Shown one piece after another: positions 2,031 to 4,531 of a stretch of DNA of 64,000 nucleotides; position 1 is the stretch's first letter; every line of letters begins with the position of its first letter. The notes beneath the pieces are model-generated. The model was given only the letters and a program-made list of their open reading frames with translations, had not been told where the DNA came from and ran no database searches. The DNA lies in NCBI GenBank assembly GCA_004564215.1, contig CP024846.1, positions 2,741,501-2,805,500 of the forward strand, written 5' to 3'. The position numbers and the translations under genes are program-made. The stretch comes from Beijerinckiaceae bacterium (lineage in GTDB: Bacteria; Pseudomonadota; Alphaproteobacteria; Rhizobiales; Beijerinckiaceae).

Positions 2031-3428
2031 ATGTCCTACGATCTGATCGTCATTGGAACCGGCCCTGGGGGCTATGTTTGCGCGATCCGCGCCGCGCAGC
2101 TCGGCCTCAAAGTCGGAGTCGTTGAAAAGCGCGAGACGCATGGCGGGACGTGTCTCAACATCGGCTGCATTCCCTCGAAGGCGCTGCTCCATGCGTCGGA
2201 TAAATTCGCCGAAGTGGAGCATGATCTCGCCGCCTTCGGCGTTATCACGGGCAAGCCGCAGCTCGATCTGCCGGCGATGATGAAGCACAAGGACGAGACG
2301 GTCGCTGCCAATGTCAACGGCGTCGGCTTCCTGTTCAAGAAGCACAAGATCGACTCCTTTATCGGCCACGGGGTCATCGTGGCTCCAGGTGAGATTGTCG
2401 TGAAGGCGGCGGACGGGTCAGCCCAAAAGCTTGAGACCAGGAACATCGTTATCGCCACCGGCTCCGATGTAGCGCAGCTTCCGGGCGTCGAGATCGACGA
2501 AAAAGCCATTGTGTCGTCGACTGGTGCGCTTTCGCTTGAACAAGTGCCGGCAAAACTTCTCGTTGTCGGCGCCGGTGTGATCGGTCTCGAACTCGGCTCG
2601 GTCTGGAGCCGTCTCGGCGCCGAAGTGACCGTCGTCGAATATTTGGACCGCATTTTGCCGGGCATGGATGGCGAAGTCGCCAAGCAATTTCAGCGCATGC
2701 TGGAGAAACAGGGCTTTCGCTTCCATCTCGGCCATAAGGTCGTGAAGGTCGATAAACAGAAGGCGGGCTTGGAAGTCAGCATCGAGCCGTCGAAGGGGGG
2801 CGAGGCCGCCGTCATGCCGGCCGATGTCGTGCTGGTGGCGATCGGCCGGCGCCCCGTGACCGAAGGCCTGGGCTTGGAAGCGCTTGGCGTCGCGCTGGAT
2901 CGTGGGCGGGTCGTGATCGACGATCGTTTCGCGACCAATGTCGCCGGGATTTATGCGATCGGCGATGTCGTGCGCGGCCCCATGCTGGCCCACAAGGCCG
3001 AAGACGAAGGGATTGCGGTGGCCGAAATCATCGCCGGCCAGCATGGCCATGTGAATTACGAGGCCATCCCCTCGGTCGTCTACACCATGCCGGAAGTGGC
3101 GAGTGTCGGCGCGACGGAGGAAGAACTCAAAGCCAAGGGCATTGCCTATAAGGTCGGCAAATTTCCATTCACCGCCAATGGGCGGGCGCGGGCGATGCGG
3201 AAGATGGAAGGCTTTGTGAAAATCCTTGCCGATGCAACGTCGGACCGGGTGCTCGGCGTGCACATCATTGGCGCGGGGGCGGGCGAACTCATCGCCGAAG
3301 CGACCCTGCTGATGGAGTTCGGTGGCTCGGCGGAGGACTTGGCCCGCACCTGCCACGCTCATCCGACCATGTCGGAAGCAGTCAAGGAAGCTGCGCTCGC
3401 GGTGGATAAAAGAGCGATCCATATTTGA
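2031..3428 (+). CDS. lpd: Dihydrolipoamide dehydrogenase (E3)
   Basis: This flavoprotein reoxidises dihydrolipoamide with NAD+ for 2-oxo-acid dehydrogenase complexes. The 465 residues are full length. The FAD-binding glycine motif GTGPGG is at residues 9-14. The redox-active disulfide is Cys41 and Cys46 in GGTCLNIGCIPSK, the NAD motif is VVGAGVIGLELGS, and the active-site His-Pro motif HAHPTMSE lies near residue 442. The ATG lies 12 bp after the sucB stop, so the gene belongs to the suc operon. Its last 34 codons recur, diverged, about 1 kb downstream at 4325-4426. That suggests the tail was the junction of a recombination or insertion event. Confidence 0.97.
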   Translation: MSYDLIVIGTGPGGYVCAIRAAQLGLKVGVVEKRETHGGTCLNIGCIPSKALLHASDKFAEVEHDLAAFGVITGKPQLDLPAMMKHKDETVAANVNGVGFLFKKHKIDSFIGHGVIVAPGEIVVKAADGSAQKLETRNIVIATGSDVAQLPGVEIDEKAIVSSTGALSLEQVPAKLLVVGAGVIGLELGSVWSRLGAEVTVVEYLDRILPGMDGEVAKQFQRMLEKQGFRFHLGHKVVKVDKQKAGLEVSIEPSKGGEAAVMPADVVLVAIGRRPVTEGLGLEALGVALDRGRVVIDDRFATNVAGIYAIGDVVRGPMLAHKAEDEGIAVAEIIAGQHGHVNYEAIPSVVYTMPEVASVGATEEELKAKGIAYKVGKFPFTANGRARAMRKMEGFVKILADATSDRVLGVHIIGAGAGELIAEATLLMEFGGSAEDLARTCHAHPTMSEAVKEAALAVDKRAIHI

Positions 3429-3513
3429 GATCGGTGAGACATCGGTCCACACGATTGTCCGATTTCGCGGGCGGTTCGTACCAAAATGTTTCACGTGAAA
3501 CATTTTGGTACGA
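3327..3513. repeat. Direct repeat, copy A: lpd tail plus parS palindrome
   Basis: This segment covers the last 34 codons of lpd, a spacer of about 50 bp and the palindromic parS. It is repeated in the same orientation at about 4325-4518. Over the 102 coding bases the copies differ at 12 positions (88% identity by eye), with eight of ten changed codons synonymous. The 60 bp around parS differ at only two positions. The mostly synonymous pattern indicates two separately evolved lpd alleles rather than a recent local duplication. Confidence 0.85.
3476..3513. other. parS centromere site 1 (38-bp perfect palindrome)
   Basis: The core TGTTTCACGTGAAACA at 3487-3502 equals the conserved bacterial parS consensus bound by ParB. 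Symmetry extends without a mismatch from 3476 to 3513. There is no loop or U-tract as expected of a terminator, although it lies 48 bp past the lpd stop. Chromosomal parS sites usually lie close to the replication origin. No parA or parB gene is in the window. Confidence 0.85.
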
Positions 3514-3616
3514 TTGATAAATACGATAATCATGCGTTCGCACGGCGTGGCGATCGTCCTTTGGATGGGTCTTTGGTCACGGATAACACCGGAGCCAGCT
3601 GCCGACGATCTCTAAA

Positions 3617-3835
3617 ATGGCGCGATACACCATGGATAGGAAATCACGATTTGCGATTAGGCGGTATGATAGCTTGGACGCCATGAAGGCCGACGAATAC
3701 GCCTATTGGCAGCAACGGCCCGGCCATGAACGGCTTGCCGCTGTCTCCGAGATAACCAGCGAGGCCTACGGCCTGAAAGATTTGCGCCTCGATGTACCAA
3801 GACTTCAAAGAACTCTTGTCCATCTTAAACGATAA
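3617..3835 (+). CDS. Small conserved protein preceding a nucleotidyltransferase
   Basis: The 72-residue basic protein contains the stretch DAMKADEYAYWQQRPGHER and ends in a basic PRLQRTLVHLKR tail. Small proteins of this look commonly sit directly upstream of DUF6036-type nucleotidyltransferases, and that is the arrangement here: its 3' end overlaps the next gene by 44 bp in another frame, indicating translational coupling. A second in-frame ATG at 3632 is possible, and no convincing ribosome binding site is visible before either. The function is unknown. A role as regulator or antitoxin-like partner is inference from the pairing only. The gene lies inside the segment bounded by the two lpd-tail/parS repeats. 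Confidence 0.6.
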   Translation: MARYTMDRKSRFAIRRYDSLDAMKADEYAYWQQRPGHERLAAVSEITSEAYGLKDLRLDVPRLQRTLVHLKR

Positions 3836-4310
3836 CAAGGTCAAATATCTTGTCGTGGGCGGCTATGCCGTTTCCTTTCATGCCCAACCTCGGGCGACCA
3901 AGGATTTGGACATCCTGATCAAGCCCGACGCCGAAAATGCGGCGGCGGTTTATGCGGCGTTGACTAAGTTTGGTGCTCCGCTCGAAGGACTGGGGCCGGA
4001 CGATTTTATCGAACGAGGCAAATTTTTCCGTTTAGGAACGCCACCGGTCATGGTGGATATTCTGCCGGAAATCAGCGGCGTCGATTTTGACGGTGCATGG
4101 CAACGGCGGGTTGAGGTGACGGTTGACGCCGAGACCGGCCTACAGGCGCTATTTATTTCCGAAGCCGATTTGATTTCCGCGAAACTCGCGGCCGGGCGAC
4201 CCCAAGATCTTGCCGACGTGGACGCGCTTCAGAGGGCCAAGGGAAGCACCAGGGGCGGCAGCGAACAGAAGCGCGGGAAGGCGGCAAAAAAAACCACTCC
4301 AAAGCGCTGA
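3792..4310 (+). CDS. Nucleotidyltransferase-fold protein (DUF6036-like)
   Basis: The 172-residue protein carries the minimal nucleotidyltransferase signature VVGGYAVSFHAQPRATKDLD. This is the Gly-Gly helix followed by the Asp-Leu-Asp metal-binding pair near residues 39-41, and a further acidic site VMVDI lies near residue 93. Such stand-alone NTases resemble MNT-type toxin-antitoxin or AbiEii-like enzymes, but the substrate cannot be read from sequence. The last 25 residues are a lysine- and arginine-rich tail suggesting nucleic-acid contact. It follows the small gene at 3617 with an overlap, and its stop lies only 14 bp before the duplicated lpd tail. It is therefore the cargo of the repeat-bounded segment. 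Confidence 0.75.
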   Translation: MYQDFKELLSILNDNKVKYLVVGGYAVSFHAQPRATKDLDILIKPDAENAAAVYAALTKFGAPLEGLGPDDFIERGKFFRLGTPPVMVDILPEISGVDFDGAWQRRVEVTVDAETGLQALFISEADLISAKLAAGRPQDLADVDALQRAKGSTRGGSEQKRGKAAKKTTPKR

Positions 4311-4324
4311 CTTTCGCCCGCGGG

Positions 4325-4426
4325 TCGGCGGAGGATCTTGCCCGCACCTGCCACGCCCATCCGACCATGTCGGAAGCGGTGAAGGAAGCCGCGATGGTGG
4401 TGGACAAAAGGGCGATCCATATTTGA
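4325..4426 (+). pseudogene. Duplicated 3' tail of lpd (34-codon remnant)
   Basis: Thirty-four codons from SAEDLARTCHAHPTMSEAV to the stop match the end of lpd. Only two residues are changed (Leu to Met, Ala to Val) and most codon differences are synonymous. There is no start or upstream reading frame, so it is not expressed as an enzyme. Together with the following parS it forms repeat copy B, whose spacer is a few bases longer than in copy A. It looks like the scar of homologous exchange or integration at the lpd 3' end. Confidence 0.85.
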
Positions 4427-4483
4427 GGCGCCGCCTTGATCGGTGAGGCGTCACGCGCTTTGTCTGATTTCGCGGGCGGTTCG

Positions 4484-4515
4484 TACCAAAATGTTTCACG
4501 TGAAACATTTTGGTA
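4484..4515. other. parS centromere site 2 (32-bp perfect palindrome)
   Basis: It has the same core, TGTTTCACGTGAAACA, at 4492-4507. Perfect symmetry covers 4484-4515, and one flanking base change shortens it compared with site 1. It lies 1005 bp from site 1 and sits in the same relation to the lpd-tail remnant. Confidence 0.85.
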
Positions 4516-4531
4516 TGATTGACGCGGTATT

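What the first reader, a model, noticed from the sequence alone, without database searches (positions are those of the whole stretch)
3327..4518. A diverged lpd-tail plus parS direct repeat brackets a nucleotidyltransferase cargo
The last 34 codons of lpd and the following parS palindrome are present twice in the same orientation, about 1 kb apart. Two small overlapping genes lie between them: a nucleotidyltransferase and its partner. The coding part of the repeat differs at 12 of 102 bases, eight of ten changed codons being synonymous, while parS is almost unchanged. The second tail thus evolved as part of a working lpd in another lineage and arrived with the cargo, through integration or homologous exchange at lpd-parS. 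A mobile or exchanged unit that ends in a centromere site would be an unusual arrangement: the repeated tail keeps lpd intact and the cargo is linked to a ParB-binding site.
Basis: partly seen in the sequence, partly recalled or inferred. Interest (0 to 1): 0.75.

Follow-up and report, generated by a model that had tools for sequence, protein, structure and literature searches.

The report
Displaced gene end beside parS-like repeats
A second, foreign-looking copy of the end of an enzyme gene sits one kilobase behind the intact gene with a small gene pair in between, and the supposed centromere site at both ends proves to be a repeat that carries a centromere-type recognition sequence to many places on the chromosome in this small group of bacteria.

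Summary
The duplication is real: the lpd tail 3324-3428 recurs at 4322-4426 (92/105 bases), each copy followed by a 38-bp palindrome with an exact parS core; a DUF6036 nucleotidyltransferase pair lies between. Mostly synonymous divergence suggests that tail 2 evolved inside a working gene, so a two-lineage origin is likely, but no sampled relative is the donor. It is not one mobile unit: the same genome has a ccmH case with other cargo, and relative G001 has headless pheS and RND-permease tails. I favour homology-anchored recombination with one illegitimate join, leaving a displaced 3' end. The palindrome is not the chromosome's centromere: it lies 0.70 Mb from the parAB locus with its own parS pair and is one of 14 dispersed copies; it follows the intact gene in three of the four cases, so its causal role is open. 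The repeat is the bigger surprise: exact ParB boxes number 14, 61, 29, 29 and 42 in five genomes of the genus, against 2 in the eight other genus genomes counted, at most 10 in the rest of 199 family genomes and at most 5 in the rest of 397 order genomes. ParB's GKSRSHV helix segment is unchanged in the two such genomes checked; binding is untested.

The parts
2031..3428 (+). lpd, intact dihydrolipoamide dehydrogenase gene
   Evidence: Pfam Pyr_redox_2 and Pyr_redox_dim
3324..3428 (+). lpd tail, copy 1 (codon 432 to stop)
3476..3513 (.). palindrome 1 with exact parS 16-mer at 3487-3502; its right flank resembles the longer form of the repeat
3617..3835 (+). 72-aa partner ORF, no library match
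   Evidence: conserved next to the nucleotidyltransferase in G140
3792..4310 (+). DUF6036 nucleotidyltransferase
   Evidence: PF19502 38.1 bits
4311..4321 (.). join between cargo and tail 2 (inferred illegitimate junction)
4322..4426 (+). lpd tail, copy 2, headless
4481..4518 (.). palindrome 2 with exact parS 16-mer at 4492-4507
4532..4900 (+). 122-aa ORF beyond the repeat, no Pfam match

Best explanation
The segment is a displaced gene 3' end. Two lineages each had lpd followed by the dispersed palindromic repeat. DNA of one paired with the chromosome of the other through the homologous lpd end, and the far side was sealed by a single illegitimate join (nucleotidyltransferase stop to lpd codon 432). 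The cell keeps a complete lpd, a headless second tail with its own palindrome is left downstream, and what lay beyond the donor's or recipient's repeat (the nucleotidyltransferase pair) is trapped between. Shown: two tails, two palindromes, a second case at ccmH in the same genome and two more headless tails (pheS, RND permease) in relative G001, mostly synonymous divergence, palindromes that are dispersed repeats. Inferred: an unsampled sister lineage as source, homology at one side and illegitimate joining at the other, and which copy is native. A role of the palindrome as pairing site or breakpoint is possible but not needed. The palindrome itself is a dispersed extragenic repeat with an exact ParB box, not this chromosome's centromere.
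For: Second case at ccmH with other cargo; pheS and RND-permease headless tails in G001; lpd 10 synonymous and 3 non-synonymous base changes, ccmH 7 and 2, combined P 3.6e-4 under a one-dead-copy model; RND tail 8 of 11 changed codons synonymous by my reading of the alignment; at 8 of 13 differing lpd sites tail 2 has the commonest state of 14 relatives, tail 1 at 3, neither or a tie at 2; cargo homology to G140 covers just the two genes; single lpd tails in 29 relatives' loci and single ccmH in 14 other genus genomes. Precedent: displaced 3' ends proposed to arise by homology-facilitated illegitimate recombination (PMC5361080, passages).
Against: The two lpd tails are each other's nearest sequences by count (92/105), and no donor genome was found. 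The pheS fragment in G001 has internal deletions and its downstream side lacks the palindrome. The junction shows no diagnostic feature. The ccmH tail has a frameshift, so it is decaying now.
Confidence: 0.5

Rival explanations
1. In-lineage tandem duplication of gene end and palindrome, with loss of the second gene's head, cargo insertion and divergence in place.
For: Tails 1 and 2 are nearest to each other by count; the ccmH copies are 93% alike, far closer than ccmH of relatives.
Against: Too few non-synonymous changes for a copy that died at duplication (P 0.006, 0.025, combined 3.6e-4), unless the second gene stayed whole and working for long.
Confidence: 0.22
2. Site-specific integration of an element that carries a replacement gene end (as prophage e14 at icd, recalled), since decayed to its cargo; or insertion directed to the palindrome.
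For: The gene stays complete; similarity ends close to the palindrome's right edge at both G000 loci.
Against: No integrase among the ORFs between the repeats; different genes, cargo and left boundaries at each case; the RND case has no palindrome beside it.
Confidence: 0.12
3. One reading: a mobile or exchanged unit that ends in a functional centromere site and profits from ParB binding.
For: The core is the exact ParB consensus and the ParB segment GKSRSHV is conserved.
Against: Most copies of the palindrome carry no such cargo, and the parS pair beside parAB is elsewhere.
Confidence: 0.03

Closest known systems
Displaced or orphan 3' ends attributed to homology-facilitated illegitimate recombination (Vibrio T6SS effector-immunity arrays, Rhs loci; PMC5361080)
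   Same: A complete gene upstream, new genes behind it, and the headless end of a homologous gene pushed downstream.
   Different: Here housekeeping genes (lpd, ccmH, pheS) rather than toxin genes, and a palindromic repeat after the intact gene in three of four cases.
Chromosomal parS
   Same: Exact 16-bp core TGTTTCACGTGAAACA.
   Different: 40-bp palindrome, dispersed over the chromosome, far from parAB; a separate parS pair exists at parAB.
REP-type extragenic palindromes
   Same: Short, palindromic, dispersed, mostly intergenic and often between convergent genes.
   Different: ParB box as core; no RAYT found (G000 has no Y1_Tnp match).
DUF6036 nucleotidyltransferases (PF19502)
   Same: Passes the Pfam cut-off; overlapping small partner ORF, as in G140.
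   Different: Function untested; below the AbiEii cut-off.

Membership tests
chromosomal parS | match to the 16-bp ParB consensus | tested here: met
   exact at 3487-3502 and 4492-4507
chromosomal parS | location near the parAB/origin region | tested here: not met
   0.70 Mb from the parS pair at 2,042,917/2,042,954 beside gidA, parA, parB; origin itself not mapped
chromosomal parS | bound by ParB in the cell | not testable with these tools
   only indirect: GKSRSHV identical in 10 ParBs aligned, two from palindrome-rich genomes
REP-type elements | dispersed extragenic palindromes | tested here: met
   14 dispersed places in G000; 16 of 16 core places in G000 and 48 of 51 in G001 intergenic by an ORF heuristic
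REP-type elements | associated RAYT (Y1 transposase) | tested here: not met
   no Y1_Tnp in G000; 3 of 15 genus genomes have one, IS200-like by my reading, no palindrome in the fetched 2.2-3.4 kb
integrative element with gene-tail attachment site | integrase inside the element | tested here: not met
   ORFs between the repeats: partner and nucleotidyltransferase at lpd; L,D-transpeptidase at ccmH
homology-facilitated illegitimate recombination product | homologous anchor at one end | tested here: met
   lpd tails 92/105, ccmH tails 93% over 326 bp
homology-facilitated illegitimate recombination product | donor and recipient forms known | tested here: not met
   no donor among sampled genomes
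DUF6036 nucleotidyltransferase | Pfam gathering score | tested here: met
   38.1 against 23.6 bits
AbiEii type IV toxin | Pfam gathering score | tested here: not met
   19.6 against 22.5 bits; PADLOC AbiEii E 0.0055

The most novel reading that the evidence does not exclude
In one clade of Methylocapsa/USC-alpha-like bacteria a dispersed palindromic repeat has carried the exact ParB recognition sequence to 14-61 places on the chromosome, so that ParB, and through it SMC, loads at many sites: a distributed instead of a single bacterial centromere. The same palindromes may serve as exchange points at which gene ends and cargo of sister lineages are spliced in.
Probability: 0.25. Interest if true: 0.85.

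Novelty: new variant of a known kind. Interest (0 to 1): 0.6.

Why it matters
In Caulobacter an extra parS cluster is tolerated best within about 500 kb around ori, to a lesser degree near ter, and is strongly disfavoured in mid-arm (PMC5815017, abstract and one section read); a review asks why parS sites cluster (PMC7333895, passages). Genomes with up to 61 exact ParB boxes spread around the chromosome are a natural exception, so this question becomes directly testable by ChIP-seq and Hi-C. The displaced ends of lpd, ccmH, pheS and an RND gene are scars from which exchange with sister lineages can be read.

Tried and rejected
Rejected or dropped: (1) palindrome as this chromosome's parS (place, copy number). 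(2) RAYT-driven spread: Y1_Tnp matches occur in 3 of 15 genus genomes, all palindrome-rich, but look IS200-like by my reading and have no palindrome in the fetched 2.2-3.4 kb; the larger stretches were not scanned. (3) A once-whole palindrome at ccmH split between copies A and B: flank match 7 of 8, but flanks of single palindromes are not symmetric beyond 40 bp, so it proves nothing. (4) My first reading that palindrome 2 carries the long repeat's right flank: 39 of 200 shuffles reach its score. This weakens the claim that the palindrome is needed, since the RND case has none beside it. (6) Rfam: no match. (7) Phages: no match; plasmids: 61 records with partial matches only, none covering 80%. 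(8) Depletion of palindromes around parAB: in G001 the largest gap (407 kb among 50 listed of 61 places) holds the parAB region, and 400 kb of it read directly hold only the two parS cores there; in G000 the gap around parAB is the second largest of 12. A hint only.

Limits: one search covers the 30 loci fetched of 57 genomes with a match, flanks up to 1.5 kb, some shorter; one search uses 14 of the 29 relatives; one search uses 18 lpd sequences, supports are UFBoot; one search leaves out a few bases around the ccmH frameshift, with one more substitution there; the G001 palindrome set is 51 core places in 49 loci of 61; in the G001 control stretch (400 kb) one row (170 bp, 79%, 923 bp apart) was not resolved; and 89 gene identities are my reading of ORFs. 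The ccmH case was found through the palindrome and the G001 cases near palindromes, so the sample is biased towards palindromes.

Full report
WHAT IS THERE. The window lies in a single-contig genome of 3,326,434 bp (G000). lpd (2031-3428) is intact. Its last 34 codons plus stop recur at 4322-4426 (92 of 105 bases). Each copy is followed by a palindrome, 3476-3513 and 4481-4518, with the exact 16-mer TGTTTCACGTGAAACA at 3487-3502 and 4492-4507. Between them lie a 72-aa ORF (3617-3835) and an overlapping 172-aa DUF6036 nucleotidyltransferase (3792-4310; PF19502 38.1 bits against a cut-off of 23.6; AbiEii 19.6 against 22.5, not met). The relative in G140 matches 3619-4311 at 84%, that is, just the two genes. 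About 11 bases separate the stop codon from tail 2.

THE 'parS' IS A DISPERSED REPEAT. The genome has 18 places within 2 mismatches of the 16-mer. Two (2,042,917 and 2,042,954) lie beside gidA, upstream of gidB, parA and parB (gene names by my reading, ParB confirmed by Pfam). Fourteen others, the window pair included, share the arms of one palindrome, ATCGTACCAAAATGTTTCACGTGAAACATTTTGGTACGAT, some with a degenerate arm or core; the remaining two are 2-mismatch places at which no palindrome was seen. Some copies have longer conserved flanks. The window copies are 0.70 Mb from the parAB region. By an ORF heuristic, 16 of 16 core places in G000 (the pair beside gidA included) and 48 of 51 in G001 are intergenic; 7 and 22 lie between convergent genes. 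In G001 all 48 mismatches of the 50 listed places (61 in all) fall in the arms, none in the 14-bp core; in 102 half-sites the seven core bases are invariant while several arm positions fall to 61-85% (that pattern fixed 12 of 14 core bases). Against a general rule, 6 of 23 copies in G004 have a core mismatch, and so have two of the G000 copies.

HOW UNUSUAL. Exact GTTTCACGTGAAAC per genome: G000 14, G001 61, G004 29, G006 29, G007 42, against 2 in G005, G009, G010, G011 and G013 and in G002, G008 and G014. G003 and G012 were not counted in this way; in the palindrome search G003 had 0 and G012 4. Apart from G000, G001 and G007, the highest of 199 family genomes is 10; apart from G000, the highest of 397 order genomes is 5. 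In the lpd tree the five rich genomes group together, with weak support (UFBoot 79 protein, 75 DNA). Some places are old: G000 61,992 matches G001 and G006 palindrome sites on both flanks and G000 1,698,510 a G004 site on both flanks, among the loci compared. Contig titles (Methylocapsa sp., USCa_AHI Beijerinckiaceae, Hyphomicrobiales bin15: 17 of 31 stretches) point to Methylocapsa/USC-alpha-like bacteria; the window's own name is not given. G000 has one ParB_N match; the segment GKSRSHV is identical in the 10 ParBs aligned, two of them from palindrome-rich genomes.

FURTHER CASES OF THE ARCHITECTURE. (a) G000 2,869,217-2,871,024: ccmH (PF03918), palindrome, about 1 kb with an L,D-transpeptidase gene (YkuD, reverse strand), then a headless ccmH tail and the palindrome; repeat 326 bp at 93%; the second tail has a frameshift. 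The 14 other genus genomes have a single ccmH match and no exact core in the fetched flanks. (b) G001 near 305,472: pheS, palindrome, about 0.9 kb with a 193-aa ORF, then a headless pheS fragment (136 bp at 87%, an internal deletion, then the gene's last bases and spacer) without the palindrome. (c) G001 near 3,611,000: end of an RND permease, about 0.4 kb, then a headless copy of its end (141 bp at 91%), with no palindrome beside it; the nearest listed one is 1.4 kb further on. Gene names in (b) and (c) are my reading of ORFs. So displaced gene ends are a process in this clade; a palindrome follows the intact gene in three of four cases.

WHERE THE SECOND TAILS EVOLVED. lpd: 10 synonymous and 3 non-synonymous base changes; ccmH: 7 and 2. 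If one copy had been dead since duplication, about 60% should be non-synonymous: P 0.0057, 0.025, combined 3.6e-4 (plain binomial without a codon or rate model). RND: 8 of 11 changed codons synonymous (read). At 8 of 13 differing lpd sites tail 2 has the commonest state of 14 relatives, tail 1 at 3. So tail 2 was for long part of a working gene. Against this, tails 1 and 2 are each other's nearest sequences by count (92/105; tail 2 to G005 91/105; tail 1 to G004 89/105), and the 102-bp tree is unresolved. None of 29 relatives' lpd loci has a second tail in the fetched flanks. A degenerate palindrome lies about 330 bp beyond lpd in G006 and a truncated one about 950 bp beyond it in G007.

CONTROLS. 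In the window the lpd pair is the only local direct repeat (within 6 kb, E<=1e-8). In 400 kb of G000 the 8 rows are large multimodular genes, efflux paralogues, a repeat inside one GTPase gene and intergenic repeats. In 400 kb of G001 without dispersed palindromes there are 9 rows: repeats inside genes, one exact 1.2-kb repeat, one paralogue-like row and one unresolved 170-bp row. Of the 49 G001 palindrome loci, two show a headless gene end. Because the further cases were sought around palindromes, their link with the palindrome is not free of ascertainment.

HOW IT MOST LIKELY WORKS. Homology between two lineages' gene ends anchors incoming DNA; the far side is joined illegitimately, at lpd codon 432 and near ccmH codon 78. 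A complete gene remains, downstream genes are trapped, and a headless end is left. This is the model proposed for Vibrio T6SS arrays and Rhs orphan ends (PMC5361080, passages). Similarity ends close to the palindrome's right edge at both G000 loci, which would suit a break or crossover there, but case (c) shows that a palindrome is not required.

IN PRINT? The listings show no paper on a dispersed parS-core repeat, and no paper on DUF6036; the library lacks most subscription journals, and I saw listings only, except for PMC5361080, PMC7333895 and PMC7022226 (passages) and PMC5815017 (abstract and one section). Those state that parS sites usually lie near ori, that Streptomyces and Listeria have up to 20-23 near the origin, and that P. 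aeruginosa ParB binds hundreds of half-sites.

VERDICT. Observation confirmed; exchange with a sister lineage likely but unproven; mobile unit and centromere reading not supported; the dispersed repeat is the more interesting object and can be tested directly.

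Noticed in passing
G001 C1:2080720-2488046: The largest gap between listed dispersed palindromes (407 kb) holds the parAB region; only the two parS cores at 2,224,457 and 2,224,740 were found in 400 kb of it.
   Followed up: partly
L033, L042, L044: An Oscillospiraceae MAG (WRMG01) has at least three parS-core palindromes with a shared left flank, perhaps an independent dispersed family.
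   Followed up: no
L215 and L221 against L212-L214, L216-L220: ParB reads GHARLLL in both palindrome-rich genomes aligned and GHARALL in the other eight.
   Followed up: no
window 19620-19736 and 56425-56541: 117-bp direct repeat, 99% identical, 37 kb apart.
   Followed up: no
window 5083-5193: Inverted repeat of an intergenic type, arms 41 bp at 85%.
   Followed up: no
G001, G004, G007 (L242-L247): Y1 transposase matches occur only in three palindrome-rich genomes of the genus; IS200-like by my reading.
   Followed up: partly
L252-L271, offsets 383291-383459 and 384214-384382: A 170-bp direct repeat at 79%, 923 bp apart, in G001; possibly another displaced gene end.
   Followed up: no
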